A stretch of 41,331 nucleotides of DNA from Microcaldota archaeon (GTDB lineage Archaea; Micrarchaeota; Micrarchaeia; Micrarchaeales; Micrarchaeaceae): assembly GCA_030037495.1 (NCBI GenBank), contig JASHRG010000031.1, positions 1 to 41,331 on the forward strand, in the 5' to 3' direction. The notes below the pieces were generated by a model, which was not told the DNA's origin, ran no database searches, and worked only from the letters and a program-made list of their open reading frames with translations. The translations under genes were made by a program, and so were the position numbers. Shown piece after piece: positions 2,312 to 40,928 of the stretch. Position 1 is the first letter of the stretch, and every line of letters begins with the position of its first letter.

Positions 2312-2419
2312 GGGCTCGTAGCTCAGCTTGGATAGAGCGACAGCCTTCTAATAAACTTTTGAAAGAAGTTTAACCAAGAAGAAAGCTGAAGGTCGCGGGT
2401 TCAAATCCCGCCGAGCCCG
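2312..2419 (+). tRNA. tRNA-Arg (UCU anticodon) with intron
   Basis: The acceptor strand GGGCTCG (2312-2318) pairs with CGAGCCC (2412-2418), followed by discriminator G. The D arm is GCTC...GAGC and the T arm is GCGGG-TTCAAAT-CCCGC (2395-2411). The anticodon loop is CTTCTAA, with anticodon TCT at 2347-2349 and stem ACAGC/GCTGA, which has an A-A mismatch at 27-43. About 33 nt (2351-2383) interrupt the gene at the canonical 37/38 site. The intron has an internal hairpin (AAACTT/AAGTTT), and AGAAG in it can pair with CTTCT of the anticodon loop, giving a bulge-helix-bulge-like substrate for the archaeal splicing endonuclease. A TATA-like cttaaatata sits about 27 nt upstream. CCA is not encoded. 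The 3' part is duplicated at 3072-3107. Confidence 0.93.
2351..2383 (+). other. tRNA-Arg intron (bulge-helix-bulge type)
   Basis: This is the insertion at position 37/38 of tRNA-Arg. It holds hairpin AAACTT/AAGTTT, and its AGAAG can pair with the anticodon-loop bases CTTCT, leaving AA-rich bulges on both sides as archaeal endA splicing requires. The exact ends could shift by one nucleotide because both junctions are A-rich. Confidence 0.75.
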
Positions 2420-2462
2420 GTCATTTCCGTTGAACCTAGGTGACGGCAGTGACCATCTTAGG

Positions 2463-2588
2463 CTACGCAAATACAGAATCCTTTATGTGCCCAGGCAAAG
2501 CCAGCGCTACCATTAGCGCTTTGTGTGCCTTGACCTCCTCTTTTACGAGTTTATCAAGTTCCTCTTCCGTAAGTTTTTCATCTTTCAT
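2463..2588 (-). CDS. 41-residue charged protein overlapping the Doc-like gene (possible antitoxin)
   Basis: An ATG at 2588 overlaps the last 11 nt of the Doc-like gene in another frame and opens a 41-codon ORF ending TAG at 2463-2465. The product begins MKDEKLTEEELDKLVKEEVK and continues with a helix-prone, partly hydrophobic tail (AHKALMVALALPGH). The overlap implies translational coupling with the upstream toxin-like gene. No family is recognised. Position and size would suit an antitoxin or neutralising peptide, but typical Phd antitoxins precede Doc and are longer, so this is an inference. A chance ORF is possible. Confidence 0.4.
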   Translation of the reverse strand: MKDEKLTEEELDKLVKEEVKAHKALMVALALPGHIKDSVFA

Positions 2589-2949
2589 CTAGATCAACTA
2601 TCCATGTCAAAAATATTTTTGAGAAGGCCTCTCTCGAAAGTCTACCGTCCCTGATTTTTTGACTTGTAGATTGCACGTCTGCTATAGAGATTTCAGTAAT
2701 CTTCTTAGCATGCCAACGAAGGAACATGTCTGTAGCTATAAATGCTGTTCTTCGATTTGCACCCCTGAATGGATGTTCGTAGATAATCCTGTAATAATAT
2801 GTGGTTGCGGCTGCGATTGGCGGCATCTCGTACGCTTCCTTGGCTATTGACCTTATAGTTTCTTTCTTGAAGTTTGTCTGCTTCTTGCCTTCGTATTCAT
2901 TGAGGCGTTTGTTTATCCCAACCAGAACGTCATATGTGAGATATCTCAT
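2578..2949 (-). CDS. Doc-like Fic-domain protein (putative toxin)
   Basis: From the ATG at 2949 the product has 123 residues, close to the roughly 126 of phage P1 Doc. The reading frame extends to a TTG at 2985, but that codon abuts a TATA box (2988-2995), so transcription should begin downstream of it and the ATG is preferred. The Fic core is present: a helix with EAYEMPPIAAATTYYYRI, then HPFRGANRRTAF (H59-A69), matching the Doc-type HxFxxANKRT rather than the AMP-transferring HxFxDGNGR. The Lys of Doc is Arg here and the Asp is Gly (G63). Doc proteins phosphorylate EF-Tu; activity and target here are unknown. A 41-codon ORF overlaps its 3' end. The cassette lies between tRNA-Arg and a repeat of its 3' half. 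Confidence 0.8.
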   Translation of the reverse strand: MRYLTYDVLVGINKRLNEYEGKKQTNFKKETIRSIAKEAYEMPPIAAATTYYYRIIYEHPFRGANRRTAFIATDMFLRWHAKKITEISIADVQSTSQKIRDGRLSREAFSKIFLTWIVDLDER

Positions 2950-2987
2950 TGCAAGCGCCTCGTACAACACATATAACGCCGTCAAAA

Positions 2988-2995
2988 TATATAAA
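2988..2995 (-). promoter_or_regulatory. TATA box of the Doc cassette
   Basis: On the minus strand TTTATATA lies about 40 nt before the ATG at 2949. That puts the expected start site near 2965 and argues against the TTG at 2985 as start codon. Confidence 0.55.
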
Positions 2996-3071
2996 GATGC
3001 CGATATACAAGAGAGCGCTTAATCTGAGTTGCTGTGTATGGCCAAAATTTAATCAGAGGTTATGCAAATTT

Positions 3072-3107
3072 AAGCTGAGGGTCGCGGGTTCAAATCCCAC
3101 CGAGCCC
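3072..3107 (+). pseudogene. Orphan 3' half of tRNA-Arg (putative attachment-site repeat)
   Basis: This copies 2383-2418 of tRNA-Arg with two changes. One converts the T-stem strand CCCGC to CCCAC, breaking a pair, and no 5' half precedes it, so it cannot fold into a tRNA. It begins almost exactly where the tRNA 3' exon begins and ends at the acceptor CCC. It is best read as the displaced 3' end of the original tRNA after insertion of the Doc cassette. Confidence 0.85.
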
Positions 3108-6246: not shown

Positions 6247-6684
6247 TCACTGTGCCTCTGTTTGCTGTGCTTGCGGCTTCTGGGGCTTGCCGCCGCGCTT
6301 CACCTGCTTGTCTGTGTTTGCGTTTATGAACTGAGTTACAAGGTCCTCTTCTTGCTGCGTGTCCATCCAGGCCTTTATGTATGTGGCTATGTTCCTGAAT
6401 GGTTTTGAGAACCTGTCTGTCAGCATATAGGAGCTGCTCTCATGTTTCAGCATTCCAACTTGAACGGCGAAGTCGAGGTAGCGCTTTGCCGTTGCAATTG
6501 GTATTGATGCTGGCACATCCCTTAATCTTAGCGAGCCCTTCTTCTTCACTTCCAGCATTAGCACAGAGAACCTGTATGCCTCTGTTTCATTGTCATAGAA
6601 TATCCTAGCCACATCCTTTATGTTGACGCTCTTAAGCTTCTCTTTTAATGGAGCATCCTCATATTCCCAGTACTTTATTCCCAT
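6247..6684 (-). CDS. Uncharacterised protein with winged-helix-like C-terminal half
   Basis: I do not recognise a named family in this 145-residue protein. Residues about 40-90 (FSVLMLEVKKKGSLRLRDV, TAKRYLDFAVQVGMLKHES, SYMLTDRF) read like a winged helix: helix, helix with conserved turn, then beta wing. A helical stretch and a basic Gln/Lys-rich tail follow. It is cytosolic, with no signal or membrane segment. It precedes the secreted cupredoxin-like gene by 4 nt. The same layout, a small winged-helix-like gene then a secreted protein, recurs at 21893-19679. A DNA-binding or regulatory role is inferred. Confidence 0.6.
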   Translation of the reverse strand: MGIKYWEYEDAPLKEKLKSVNIKDVARIFYDNETEAYRFSVLMLEVKKKGSLRLRDVPASIPIATAKRYLDFAVQVGMLKHESSSYMLTDRFSKPFRNIATYIKAWMDTQQEEDLVTQFINANTDKQVKRGGKPQKPQAQQTEAQ

Positions 6685-9258: not shown

Positions 9259-10395
9259 TTGAAACTAGTGATAGCGCAGCCGTATCTTACACTTATGGGC
9301 GGGCTTGAAAAGGTGCTGCTCAAAGTGGCGCAGCATTACGATGCTGCCATCTACACCTGCGAATACAAAAAGGGCAGCACATACCCTGAGTTCAAGGATC
9401 TTGACATAAGGGTGATGGGCAGGGGCTCTGCCTTCAAGCTGCTTCCTTATGGAAGGGTGTCGCAGGGGCTTGAGTACGGGCTAACTTTCTGGAACCTGAA
9501 GATAAAAGATGACTATGATGTGCTGAACCCTCACCAGGCGCCTGGCCACTGGGCCAGCAACAACAATGACAGGGTTCTCTGGTACTGCCACACCCCGCTC
9601 AGGGACTTCTGGGATTTGTATGAGTTCAGGATGAAGCTTAAGAAGCCGCACCAGAGACCTGTCCATTATGTGGGCGTAAAGGTTGGCAGGGCAATGGACA
9701 GGATTGCTGTGGGGAAGATAGGCACGATAATAGCCAACAGCGAGAACACAAGGTCCAGATTGATAAAATACTTTGGAAGAAGGGACGCAAAGGTGCTTGG
9801 CGGTGGCATAGACTACAAGCTCTACAGCAACAACGGTGATGGGAAATATTTCTATTATCCGTCAAGGATATCGCCAAACAAGAGGCAGCTCTACGCAATA
9901 GACGCGTTTGGGATGTTCAAGAAAAGGAAGAAGGGTTACAAGCTTGTGATAGTTGGTCCGCTCTCAACAGACAGGCTCTTCCTTGACTATTATGACAAGG
10001 TGGTCAAGCGCGCAAAAGAGGTTGGTGATGTGATAGTTACGCCAAACGTGACTGAAGACAAGCTTAGGTCGCAGTACTCGATGGCCACTGCTGTACTGTA
10101 CCCCCCGATAAACGAGGATTACGGGCTTGTGCCTCTTGAGGCTATGGCTGCCGGGAAGGTGCCGATAGTTGCAAATGAGGGAGGACCCACTGTCACTGTC
10201 CTTGACAAGATAACGGGATTTCACATAGGCAGCGAGAGGGAGATGGCTGAGAGGATGCTTTACGTGGCTGATCATCCCTCAGTAGCAAAAGCCATGGGAA
10301 GGAGGGGCGCGGCCCGTGTCAGGAAGCACTACAGCTGGGAGAGATTCTTTGATGTCTTTGACAGGGAGCTGCAAAAGGTAAAGAAAGCTCATTGA
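9259..10395 (+). CDS. Glycosyltransferase family 4 (GT-B)
   Basis: The 378-residue protein begins at TTG 9259, with GGTG a few bases upstream and the sequence KLVIAQPYLTLMGGLEKVL, the typical GT4 N-terminal strand and glycine loop. The C-terminal Rossmann domain has YFYYPSRISPNKRQLYAIDAF and KLVIVGPLS. It also has the E-x7-E-type donor motif in INEDYGLVPLEAMAAGKVP (about residues 283-301), followed by ANEGGPTVTV. Such enzymes add sugars from nucleotide or lipid donors to surface glycans, lipids or glycoproteins. The specific substrate is not readable. It is divergent from SRP54 and overlaps the end of the convergent gene by 7 nt. Confidence 0.9.
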   Translation: MKLVIAQPYLTLMGGLEKVLLKVAQHYDAAIYTCEYKKGSTYPEFKDLDIRVMGRGSAFKLLPYGRVSQGLEYGLTFWNLKIKDDYDVLNPHQAPGHWASNNNDRVLWYCHTPLRDFWDLYEFRMKLKKPHQRPVHYVGVKVGRAMDRIAVGKIGTIIANSENTRSRLIKYFGRRDAKVLGGGIDYKLYSNNGDGKYFYYPSRISPNKRQLYAIDAFGMFKKRKKGYKLVIVGPLSTDRLFLDYYDKVVKRAKEVGDVIVTPNVTEDKLRSQYSMATAVLYPPINEDYGLVPLEAMAAGKVPIVANEGGPTVTVLDKITGFHIGSEREMAERMLYVADHPSVAKAMGRRGAARVRKHYSWERFFDVFDRELQKVKKAH

Positions 10396-28191: not shown

Positions 28192-28277
28192 GCCGGGGTC
28201 GCCTAGTGGTAGGGCGGCAGCCTGCTAAGCTGTTTAGTCAGAAATGGCTTCCGCGAGTTCGAATCTCGCCCCCGGCG
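28192..28277 (+). tRNA. tRNA-Ser (GCU anticodon)
   Basis: The acceptor GCCGGGG (28192-28198) pairs with CCCCGGC (28270-28276), with discriminator G. The anticodon stem GCAGC/GCTGT encloses loop CTGCTAA with anticodon GCT at 28224-28226. The long variable arm AGTCA-GAAA-TGGCT is the class II mark of serine tRNA. The T arm is GCGAG-TTCGAAT-CTCGC. There is no intron. CCA is not encoded. The 3' 65 nt are duplicated at 29576-29639, flanking an AbiE-type toxin-antitoxin cassette. Confidence 0.96.
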
Positions 28278-28286
28278 TATGCTTCA

Positions 28287-28871
28287 TTACAACATGGTGT
28301 GGGAGCGGACCTGCTGCCTTATTATACCGCTGTAATGCTTGAGGTAGCTCTCCAACCTTTTTTTGTCTACCCTTTCTGCGATAGAAGCATAGACGCTTTT
28401 GCTAAAACGCGAATGGAAGTAGATTGAGTCTATAAGTGTTTTTTCTATATCTGCCATAGGTATGTACAAATTGGTTTTGTACTGGGTCATCGAGTATCCA
28501 AAAAACTTGTTCTGCTGTATCCTCCTGACGCTCGCATTTCTTCCAAGTATGGTTATCGCCCCTCTCCTCACCCTGTTGGTGGTGATTATGCTTATTGGGG
28601 TAATGTAATCCCATAGCTTGTAGTGTGTGAGCGCGGTTTCCATGCCATAGTAGAATGGCGAGAAGGCAAAACCAGCAACCATCGGGTCGTCGTAAAGCGT
28701 GTACCTGCCCCTGGCGACAGTAAACACCTTGCCGCTCGCCGTCATATTGTGAAGAAAGATTTTAGAGTAGCCGGCTGTTGCTCCTTTCTTCTGCAAGAAC
28801 AGCCTGGCATCCCTAACTGTAAATGCCGGGAACTTCAAGAAATATTCCAGAAACTGTTCTGTGTATTTCAT
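28287..28871 (-). CDS. AbiEi-like antitoxin / transcriptional regulator
   Basis: The preferred start is ATG 28871, which overlaps the toxin stop (ATGA) and has GGTGG upstream, giving 194 residues; an in-frame start three codons earlier is less likely. The N-terminus is a winged helix (FTVRDARLFLQKKGATAGYS, NMTASGKVFTVARGRYTLYD). The AbiEi core follows: VAGFAFSPFYYGMETALTHY, then IPMADIEKTLIDSIYF. AbiEi proteins neutralise AbiEii nucleotidyltransferases and repress their own operon. Here it is the second gene, unlike bacterial abiE operons where it comes first. It ends 9 nt from tRNA-Ser. It is clearly related to the protein at 39638-40261. Confidence 0.85.
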   Translation of the reverse strand: MKYTEQFLEYFLKFPAFTVRDARLFLQKKGATAGYSKIFLHNMTASGKVFTVARGRYTLYDDPMVAGFAFSPFYYGMETALTHYKLWDYITPISIITTNRVRRGAITILGRNASVRRIQQNKFFGYSMTQYKTNLYIPMADIEKTLIDSIYFHSRFSKSVYASIAERVDKKRLESYLKHYSGIIRQQVRSHTML

Positions 28872-29515
28872 GTCGCCCACCTCTTTATGAGACCGGCCAT
28901 TTTTGCATACGTTGGTATGGCACCTGCGTATACGGTGGCCTTGAACTCTGTCTGGCTTTGATTATCTTCATCTGGTTCAGGGATATTTTTTGAAAATTCG
29001 AGCAGGGCTCTTTTTACCTTGCCTGGCTGCCTGGCGCTGTTTAATAGGACCGTTATGTCGTAGAGGTCTTTGTATGCCCGCCTGTCCCTGTACGCGTCTA
29101 TCTTCTCAAGGATCAGATCTTCTGGTGATAGCGCCAATATGTTCATCTTCGAACCATCGATACGTTCGTATGGCATCAACAGAGCCTCCTTCTCCAAGTT
29201 TCTCGGCTCTATCTTTATCTCGGTATTATTTTTTCTTACATGTATGAATGTCACGCGCTTTTCCCTGAACTTCGATACGTCTATGCCTAATCTCCCAGCA
29301 GAGCTTATGAATTTCTCTTTGAAACCAGGCTCCCACACGTATACGTCTATATCCATAGAGAACCTCTTGCCGTTGTAGCACCTCCATACCGCAGTCCCTC
29401 CGTGCATGGCCATTTTGTCTGTGATATTTGCCAATATGCCCATGACATCATCCTCAAGCTGCGCGGTTTCAAGCTCGTTTCTGCGTTTCAGGAGGCTTGC
29501 GATTGGTAAATCCAT
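28868..29515 (-). CDS. AbiEii-like nucleotidyltransferase toxin
   Basis: The 215-residue protein is a DNA polymerase beta-type nucleotidyltransferase of the AbiEii/MenT class. The active-site motif is MHGGTAVWR (G39-G40-T41) followed by FSMDIDVYV with S53, D55 and D57. A second conserved block is LSPEDLILEKIDAYRDRRAY ending KDLYDI. Family members transfer nucleotides to tRNA or other RNAs and stall growth; a tRNA target here would fit the location but is only inferred. The ATG sits just behind an inverted-repeat operator (29522-29552) and TATA box. The antitoxin overlaps its end by 4 nt. Confidence 0.87.
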   Translation of the reverse strand: MDLPIASLLKRRNELETAQLEDDVMGILANITDKMAMHGGTAVWRCYNGKRFSMDIDVYVWEPGFKEKFISSAGRLGIDVSKFREKRVTFIHVRKNNTEIKIEPRNLEKEALLMPYERIDGSKMNILALSPEDLILEKIDAYRDRRAYKDLYDITVLLNSARQPGKVKRALLEFSKNIPEPDEDNQSQTEFKATVYAGAIPTYAKMAGLIKRWAT

Positions 29516-29575: not shown

Positions 29576-29639
29576 GCGGCAGCCCGCTAAGCTGTTTAGT
29601 CAGAAATGGCTTCGCGAGTTCGAATCTCGCCCCCGGCGT
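29576..29639 (+). pseudogene. Orphan 3' part of tRNA-Ser (putative attachment-site repeat)
   Basis: This copies 28214-28278 of tRNA-Ser, from the end of the D arm through anticodon arm, variable arm, T arm and discriminator. One T to C change falls in the anticodon loop and one C is missing before the T stem. The 5' acceptor strand and D arm are absent, so no tRNA can form. It marks the far end of the AbiE cassette. Confidence 0.9.
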
Positions 29640-40261: not shown

Positions 40262-40928
40262 TGTCGTCTAACCACCTGGTTAACGTTTCTATTATACGAT
40301 CATATGGTATTGAAATTCCGGCCAAGATAAGGCCTTCTAGCTCATTCTCGTTTTTTGGGGGCTTGCCTCTTACTGTGCTAATCATATTCTTAAGGGAAGC
40401 GAGTGTCTTCTTTGACGGGTTATTAACCCTGTCTTTTAGGACCATTATGTCATACATGTCCTGGATCTCGGCCATGCCATCCTTGAATTTGCTTACATAG
40501 ACGTTTATCTTCTCGTTCAGCAGGTTTTCTGGGCTTAGTGCATGTATTATGCGTTTGCTGCCGTCAATGCGTGCGTATTCGACGGCTTCGCCTTTGGCAT
40601 GCGCGAAAGTGATGTCAAGCTTGCCAGTTGTATTATATCCTCTTACAATCACGTGCAGCGTGTTTGTTTTGTTATTAAATTTCTCTTCTCTTATAGGGTA
40701 ATCGTTAGCCGCCAATAGCTTGTGCAGCTCTTTCTGGAAAGCGCTTTCATCCTTTGGGTCAAGGTTTGCATAGAAGTCCACGTCCCTGGAGAACCTGTTG
40801 CCGCCGTAGCAGCGCCATATTGCTGTTCCTCCGTGCATCACAAGGCTGTCGTAACTAGAGTATATCAGGTCTACAAGTGAATCTTCTAGTATGGCCCTGG
40901 CTTTTTGTGCCTCATTTTTAAAGAACAT
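40251..40928 (-). CDS. AbiEii-like nucleotidyltransferase toxin (second copy)
   Basis: The ATG at 40928 gives 225 residues; an in-frame TTG at 40949 lies inside the operator at the predicted transcription start and is rejected. The active site is MHGGTAIWR (G33-G34-T35) then RFSRDVDFYA with S47, D49 and D51. The later block is LSPENLLNEKINVYVSKFKD ending QDMYDI. It matches the toxin at 28868 in layout. Toxin-first order is again unlike bacterial abiE. No tRNA fragment flanks this copy. Confidence 0.86.
   Translation of the reverse strand: MFFKNEAQKARAILEDSLVDLIYSSYDSLVMHGGTAIWRCYGGNRFSRDVDFYANLDPKDESAFQKELHKLLAANDYPIREEKFNNKTNTLHVIVRGYNTTGKLDITFAHAKGEAVEYARIDGSKRIIHALSPENLLNEKINVYVSKFKDGMAEIQDMYDIMVLKDRVNNPSKKTLASLKNMISTVRGKPPKNENELEGLILAGISIPYDRIIETLTRWLDDNAK

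What the first reader, a model, noticed from the sequence alone, without database searches (positions are those of the whole stretch)
2312..3107. Doc-like cassette framed by intron-bearing tRNA-Arg and its duplicated 3' exon
A 36-bp repeat of the tRNA-Arg 3' half (34/36 identical) closes a 690-bp unit holding a Doc-like gene and a 41-codon partner. The repeat begins at the intron/3'-exon junction, so the attachment core would be the 3' exon only. The intron therefore belongs to the chromosomal side. The displaced copy has lost a T-stem pair, showing decay after insertion.
Basis: partly seen in the sequence, partly recalled or inferred. Interest (0 to 1): 0.75.

Follow-up and report, generated by a model that had tools for sequence, protein, structure and literature searches.

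The report
Toxin cassettes anchored at tRNA genes
In this tiny archaeon (Ca. Micrarchaeota), small DNA cassettes that carry little more than a toxin and its antidote sit directly behind tRNA genes, each closed by a copied end of that tRNA, and the same cassettes recur behind different tRNAs in related species, as expected of minimal mobile units that need no integrase of their own.

Summary
The 36-bp repeat (34/36), the intron-bearing tRNA-Arg(TCT), the Doc-like gene and the 41-codon partner are all real. The partner is under strong purifying selection (9 synonymous, 1 non-synonymous change). The same doc/41-aa pair (85% / 98% aa identity) occurs in another archaeal family behind a different tRNA, Arg(TCG), in the same orientation. 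The window holds a second case: an AbiEi/AbiEii pair between tRNA-Ser(GCT) and its 3' copy. Relatives of that pair abut tRNAs for Arg, Gly, Ser, Leu and His. Across three genomes, 15 of 15 nearby partial tRNA copies lie on the tRNA's strand and 14 of 15 lie downstream. The units are mostly 0.5-3 kb, mostly toxin-antitoxin or defence genes, and most lack an integrase. Orthologous tRNAs carry different cassettes or none. Tyrosine recombinases of the clade also sit right behind tRNAs. Best reading: site-specific integration at tRNA genes by tyrosine recombinases acting in trans, with tandem accretion. The intron predates the cassette here, but in Arg(CCT) arrays displaced copies include the intron, so 'core = 3' exon only' is not general. 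New variant of a known kind; recombination itself not shown.

The parts
2312..2419 (+). tRNA-Arg(TCT), intact, 33-nt intron at about 2351-2383 (position 37/38)
   Evidence: Rfam RF00005 56.4 bits; intronless orthologs with identical exons
2383..2418 (+). proximal repeat copy = 3' exon of the tRNA plus 1 nt
2461..3006 (.). conserved cassette core, 86% nt identical to G045:C18 (L091 15371-15919)
   Evidence: blastn
2463..2588 (-). 41-codon partner, putative antitoxin; 40/41 aa identical in G045
   Evidence: no Pfam or NCBIfam match
2578..2949 (-). Doc/Fic-like toxin, 123 aa, motif HPFRGANRR
   Evidence: PF02661 33.1 bits; TIGR01550 29.3 bits, below its cut-off; motif
2984..2996 (-). TATA-box-like promoter element about 35-47 nt upstream of the doc ATG, conserved in G045
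   Evidence: sequence comparison, (inference)
3072..3107 (+). distal (displaced) copy of the tRNA-Arg 3' exon, 34/36, one T-stem pair lost
28192..28277 (+). tRNA-Ser(GCT), anchor of a second unit of the same architecture
28287..28880 (-). AbiEi-like antitoxin of the second unit
   Evidence: PADLOC AbiEi 1.8e-16; Pfam AbiEi_4 below cut-off
28868..29515 (-). AbiEii nucleotidyltransferase toxin of the second unit
   Evidence: PF08843 57.2 bits
29576..29638 (+). distal copy of tRNA-Ser(GCT), tRNA positions 23-86, 97% identical

Best explanation
The 690-bp unit is a minimal integrative cassette: one toxin-antitoxin operon with its own promoter, no integrase, inserted directly behind a tRNA gene by site-specific recombination in the tRNA's 3' half. 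Recombination restores the intact tRNA and leaves the displaced 3' part at the far end of the unit. It belongs to a clade-wide set of such cassettes in Ca. Micrarchaeota that accumulate behind tRNA genes, singly or in tandem. The recombinase is most likely a tyrosine integrase supplied in trans by larger elements that use the same kind of tRNA site. Shown: the anatomy, its repetition, homologous cassettes at different tRNAs and in different families with fixed polarity, unoccupied or differently occupied orthologous tRNAs, and integrases next to tRNAs. Inferred: circular intermediates, the recombinase acting in trans, and present-day mobility. How a cassette changes its tRNA specificity is unexplained; exchange of cargo between elements is the likeliest route.
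For: Copies: 15/15 near partial tRNA copies on the same strand, 14/15 downstream, in G000, G005 and G039. The same doc pair at Arg(TCT) in G000 and at Arg(TCG) in G045, same orientation, nearest relative in another family. AbiE pair closest to the window's: 8 of 10 loci have a tRNA next to the pair, 7 with abiEi facing the tRNA 3' end, at Ser, Gly and Arg tRNAs; more distant AbiE at Leu(TAG) and His(GTG) with 100% identical 3' copies. DUF4143 ATPase at Arg(TCG) in G045 and Val(CAC) in G039, same orientation. Swaps: Arg(GCG) carries a PIN pair in G037 and AbiE in G039 with syntenic flanks; Leu(CAG) carries different PIN cassettes in G000 and G005. Unoccupied orthologs: G005 tRNA-Ser and TatD/tRNA-Arg loci; one-sided synteny for G007 against G002 at the CCT array. 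Crossover: at Arg(CCT) a 5' copy ends and a 3' copy begins with the same heptamer CTCCTAA, the anticodon loop, the overlap region reported for IntSSV1 (PMC8371274). Integrases: 21 of 30 recombinase loci inspected have a tRNA within about 1.5 kb; integrase-bearing element at the orthologous Arg(TCT) in G002; tandem integrase + ATPase + AbiE array at Leu(TAG) in G005. Cargo: 4 of 18 toxin-type genes of G000 in 0.79% of the genome, binomial P about 1e-5.
Against: No circular form or excision is shown. The unit has no recombinase, and the only one found in the 93%-complete genome sits at tRNA-Asn. Homologous cassettes end in fragments of whichever tRNA hosts them, which a fixed attP does not explain. 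The G045 Doc unit lacks a clear distal fragment. The Doc locus itself has no perfect two-sided empty site. The 1e-5 figure was computed after the units were seen, with a chosen list of toxin families.
Confidence: 0.62

Rival explanations
1. Addiction remnants: full-size integrase-bearing elements integrated at tRNAs, then lost everything except the toxin-antitoxin operon, whose loss is lethal. The small units are eroded islands, not mobile cassettes.
For: Larger integrase elements occupy the same kinds of site (G002 5 kb; G040). Integrase-like remnants lie beyond copies in G005 (by eye). Remaining cargo is mainly TA.
Against: Homologous cassettes in different families have the same minimal content, polarity and close spacing to the tRNA (doc 43-48 nt in G000 and G045; AbiE mostly 10-106 nt), which independent erosion would have to hit repeatedly. 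HicAB, VapBC and Doc units are closed by copies with no other recognisable debris.
Confidence: 0.28
2. Target-site duplication: a transposase- or casposase-like enzyme inserts the cassette at the tRNA and duplicates part of it, so the copy always matches the host tRNA.
For: Explains directly why each cassette is closed by a fragment of its own host tRNA.
Against: Copy lengths vary from 10 to 79 nt, unlike a fixed duplication. The Doc, AbiE, VapBC and HicAB units leave no room for a transposase or Cas1 gene. Tyrosine recombinases sit at the same kind of site. The 5' and 3' copies at Arg(CCT) meet at the anticodon loop.
Confidence: 0.07
3. Segmental tRNA duplication or chance similarity with a TA pair that happened to lie between.
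For: tRNA 3' halves are conserved and short matches occur by chance.
Against: 34/36 against at most 25/36 in shuffles; 15/15 same strand; the same cassettes at different tRNAs.
Confidence: 0.03

Closest known systems
Archaeal tRNA-integrated elements with tyrosine recombinases (SSV, pNOB8, pTN3 types; PMC8371274)
   Same: Integration into tRNA genes, intact tRNA kept, 3' copy at the far end, overlap at the anticodon loop in the Arg(CCT) case; a 5'-half variant as for pTN3-type (NYN unit on G000 contig C15)
   Different: Most units here lack an integrase and hold one operon of 0.5-3 kb
Cryptic integrated elements of Thaumarchaeota (PMC6563490)
   Same: Archaeal elements at tRNAs, TA genes on some integrated elements, tandem integration known
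   Different: Those are 2.6-98 kb and are defined by an integrase
Additive genomic island with recurring tRNA-Lys 3' repeats, and tycheposons, in Methylophilaceae (PMC10872708)
   Different: Bacterial; tycheposons are given there as 4-200 kb; here single TA operons at many tRNAs
Integrons, including archaeal ones (PMC9668308)
   Same: Cassette arrays rich in TA pairs, oriented insertion, integrase at one end in G005
   Different: Sites are tRNA 3' parts; the recombinases tested do not meet the integron-integrase model
Caldiarchaeum tRNA-Thr disruption (PMC3293823)
   Same: tRNA fragment about 1.8 kb from an intron-bearing tRNA with mobile DNA between them
   Different: Recombinase cargo and a proposed intron gain; here the intron predates the cassette
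phd-doc of phage P1
   Same: Doc-like Fic toxin with a small partner
   Different: Partner has no match to antitoxin models; gene order toxin first; motif HPFRGANRR lacks the usual acidic residue (comparison with P1 from general knowledge)

Membership tests
tRNA-integrated element (tyrosine recombinase type) | Intact tRNA followed by cargo and a same-strand copy of its 3' part | tested here: met
tRNA-integrated element (tyrosine recombinase type) | Integrase gene inside the element | tested here: not met
   only doc and the 41-aa ORF as plausible genes in the Doc unit; integrases present in other units of the clade
tRNA-integrated element (tyrosine recombinase type) | Unoccupied orthologous site | tested here: met
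   G005 Ser and TatD/Arg loci lack both unit and copy; no perfect two-sided join for the Doc locus
tRNA-integrated element (tyrosine recombinase type) | Circular form / recombination activity | not testable with these tools
   no reads or assays
Integron | IntI integrase | tested here: not met
   integrases of G000 and G002 score 23-26 bits against TIGR02249, cut-off 265
Integron | attC folded recombination sites between cassettes | not tested
   junctions are tRNA 3' parts; no attC model was run
Tycheposon | Large cargo element of 4-200 kb with recombinase (as described in PMC10872708) | tested here: not met
   Doc unit 0.69 kb without recombinase
Casposon | Cas1 integrase gene and terminal inverted repeats | tested here: not met
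   no Cas1-sized ORF in the Doc unit
phd-doc toxin-antitoxin | Fic/Doc domain with HxFx(D/N)xNxR motif | tested here: inconclusive
   PF02661 above cut-off; TIGR01550 below cut-off; motif HPFRGANRR lacks the acid
phd-doc toxin-antitoxin | Phd-family antitoxin | tested here: not met
   41-aa partner has no Pfam or NCBIfam match
AbiE (second unit) | AbiEii nucleotidyltransferase with AbiEi partner | tested here: met
   PF08843 57.2 bits, PADLOC AbiEi 1.8e-16

The most novel reading that the evidence does not exclude
Micrarchaeota run an integron-like system without integrons: tRNA genes are the docking sites, tRNA-resident tyrosine integrases act in trans, and single toxin-antitoxin or defence operons are the cassettes. 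Cassettes are captured in fixed orientation, stacked in tandem and moved between tRNAs of different identity, taking on the 3' end of each new host tRNA.
Probability: 0.3. Interest if true: 0.82.

Novelty: new variant of a known kind. Interest (0 to 1): 0.62.

Why it matters
It would give some of the smallest integrative units in archaea, down to one toxin-antitoxin operon, and show how genomes below 1 Mb acquire and swap defence genes with little extra DNA. It provides sequence-defined pairs of occupied and unoccupied tRNA sites, so the recombinase, the crossover point and the role of tRNA introns (proposed as a shield against integration) become directly testable. It also marks tRNA-adjacent intervals as places to look for new antitoxins and defence operons in DPANN archaea, such as the 41-residue partner.

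Tried and rejected
Viral contigs hold no relative of the Doc protein. An AlphaFold model of Doc from two sequences (pLDDT 70) gave no PDB match below E 0.001, so it says nothing. Considered and rejected: chance repeat, casposon (no Cas1-sized ORF), integron (integrase model not met). The idea that the cassette brought the intron was rejected, because cassette-free orthologs carry an intron at the same place. Whether the displaced copy derives from an intronless tRNA could not be decided from the few bases upstream of it. The downstream neighbour Ldh_2 gave no orthologous locus at the tRNA. A search of held open-access papers found no description of such cassettes in Micrarchaeota; most subscription papers were not searchable.

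Full report
What is there. The repeat is 34/36; shuffled sequence gives at most 25/36. The doc gene most likely starts at ATG 2949, its end overlaps the start of the small ORF, and an archaeal TATA-like element lies about 40 nt upstream. Against the only close homologue, in G045 (Ca. Micrarchaeota MAS1.bin63), the small ORF shows 9 synonymous and 1 non-synonymous codon change and doc 27 and 18. The small ORF is therefore a real, strongly conserved protein.

The same cassette at another tRNA. In G045, a member of another family, the homologous 545 bp lie behind tRNA-Arg(TCG). The order is tRNA, a DUF4143 ATPase unit, a 28-nt 3' fragment of that tRNA, then the 41-aa ORF and doc in the same orientation relative to the tRNA and at nearly the same spacing. 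No clear distal fragment was found there; a 9-nt match is not evidence.

A second case in the window. tRNA-Ser(GCT) at 28192-28277 is followed by an AbiEi/AbiEii pair and a 3' copy of the tRNA at 29576-29638. The ten closest AbiE loci found in the class were inspected: eight have a tRNA gene next to the pair, seven of them with abiEi facing the tRNA 3' end. The tRNAs are Ser(GCT), Ser(CGA), another Ser-like gene with intron, Gly(GCC) twice, Gly(TCC), and a tRNA called Arg(GCG) twice, once on the other side of the pair. More distant AbiE pairs sit between Leu(TAG) or His(GTG) and perfect 3' copies of those tRNAs. The Gly copies are only 10-12 nt and are weak evidence singly, though three lie where a distal copy is expected.

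Genome-wide pattern. I scanned the tRNA-bearing contigs of G000, nearly all of G005 and all of G039 for partial tRNA copies within 20 kb. Leaving out one cross-match between two tRNAs, fifteen were found; all are on the tRNA's strand and 14 are downstream. About 12 of roughly 124 tRNAs carry one or more. Cargo: Doc, AbiE, VapBC/PIN, NYN, a nucleotidyltransferase unit, a NUDIX-like gene, DUF4143 and related ATPases, and, in other relatives, HicAB and a weak ParE-like match. In G000, 4 of 18 PIN/AbiEii/Fic genes lie in units that make up 0.79% of the genome, P about 1e-5. That calculation was made after seeing the units.

Exchange and absence. tRNA-Arg(GCG) carries a PIN pair in G037 and an AbiE pair in G039, with syntenic flanks. 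tRNA-Leu(CAG) carries different PIN cassettes in G000 and G005. G005 has the orthologous tRNA-Ser and TatD/tRNA-Arg loci without cassette and without 3' copy. Near the latter lies the ortholog of window 6247-6684, about 1 kb on, so doc, Ldh_2, LemA and HtpX are all missing there; this is not a clean single-insertion join.

Mechanism. At tRNA-Arg(CCT) on G000 contig C15 an upstream 5' copy ends, and a downstream 3' copy begins, with the same heptamer CTCCTAA, the anticodon loop. That is the overlap region described for IntSSV1, and integrases using the 5' half are known (pTN3 type; PMC8371274). Of 30 recombinase loci inspected, 21 have a tRNA within about 1.5 kb. In G005, tRNA-Leu(TAG) is followed by an integrase unit, an ATPase unit and an AbiE unit, each closed by a copy. 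In G002 a 5-kb integrase element occupies the ortholog of the window's tRNA-Arg(TCT). I therefore infer integration by tyrosine recombinases, in trans for the small units. Neither excision nor trans action is shown. Erosion of larger elements down to an addictive TA pair remains a serious rival.

Intron. Orthologs without the cassette in G001, G002, G003 and G007 have an intron at the same place, clearly homologous in G001, G002 and G007; G006 and G012 have none, with exons identical to the window's. The intron therefore did not come with this cassette. In G002 and G010, displaced copies of tRNA-Arg(CCT) include the anticodon loop and an intron, so the 3'-exon-only core seen here is not a rule.

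Place among known things. Integration at tRNA genes is well known in archaea. Thaumarchaeal cryptic elements start at 2.6 kb and are defined by an integrase (PMC6563490). Recurring tRNA 3' repeats are known from a Methylophilaceae island (PMC10872708). Archaeal integrons carry TA cassettes but use IntI and attC (PMC9668308). Integrase-less, single-operon TA cassettes repeated at many tRNAs of Micrarchaeota were not found described in the papers that could be searched. I rate this a new variant of a known kind.

Noticed in passing
window 2578-2949: The Doc motif is HPFRGANRR; homologues in G045 and G248 share the missing acidic residue, whereas about half of the more distant relatives read HxFxDGNKR and others carry N, A or S at that place.
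   Followed up: partly
G000:C15:42294-43385 (L143): A reverse transcriptase (RVT_1, 73.8 bits) ends right at the distal tRNA-Leu(CAG) copy, on the other strand.
   Followed up: no
window 2312-2419; G005:C3:339737 and G005:C2:12687: The TatD-adjacent tRNA-Arg reads TCT in G000 but CCT in G005, and the other Arg locus reads the reverse; isoacceptors appear exchanged between the two loci.
   Followed up: partly
G000:C33:378-407: Orphan 29/29 match to tRNA-Arg(CCT) positions 40-68, about 140 bp from tRNA-Ala(GGC) on a short contig.
   Followed up: no
window 40272-40919: A second, divergent AbiEii gene near the contig end, with no tRNA copy detected beside it.
   Followed up: no
L081 (G002:C40) 6474-6640 and 9378-9544; L082 4863-5028: A 167-bp stretch with the tRNA 3' part at one end is repeated at 100% within one array, and a 166-bp element end around copy 1 is shared at 92% with the other tRNA-Arg locus of the same genome.
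   Followed up: partly
L279 (G274:C2): A second, nearly complete tRNA-Gly-like gene lies beyond an AbiE unit behind tRNA-Gly(TCC).
   Followed up: no
G000:C12:24961-25923: The only tyrosine recombinase found in G000 (254 aa) sits right behind tRNA-Asn(GTT), at the end of its contig.
   Followed up: partly
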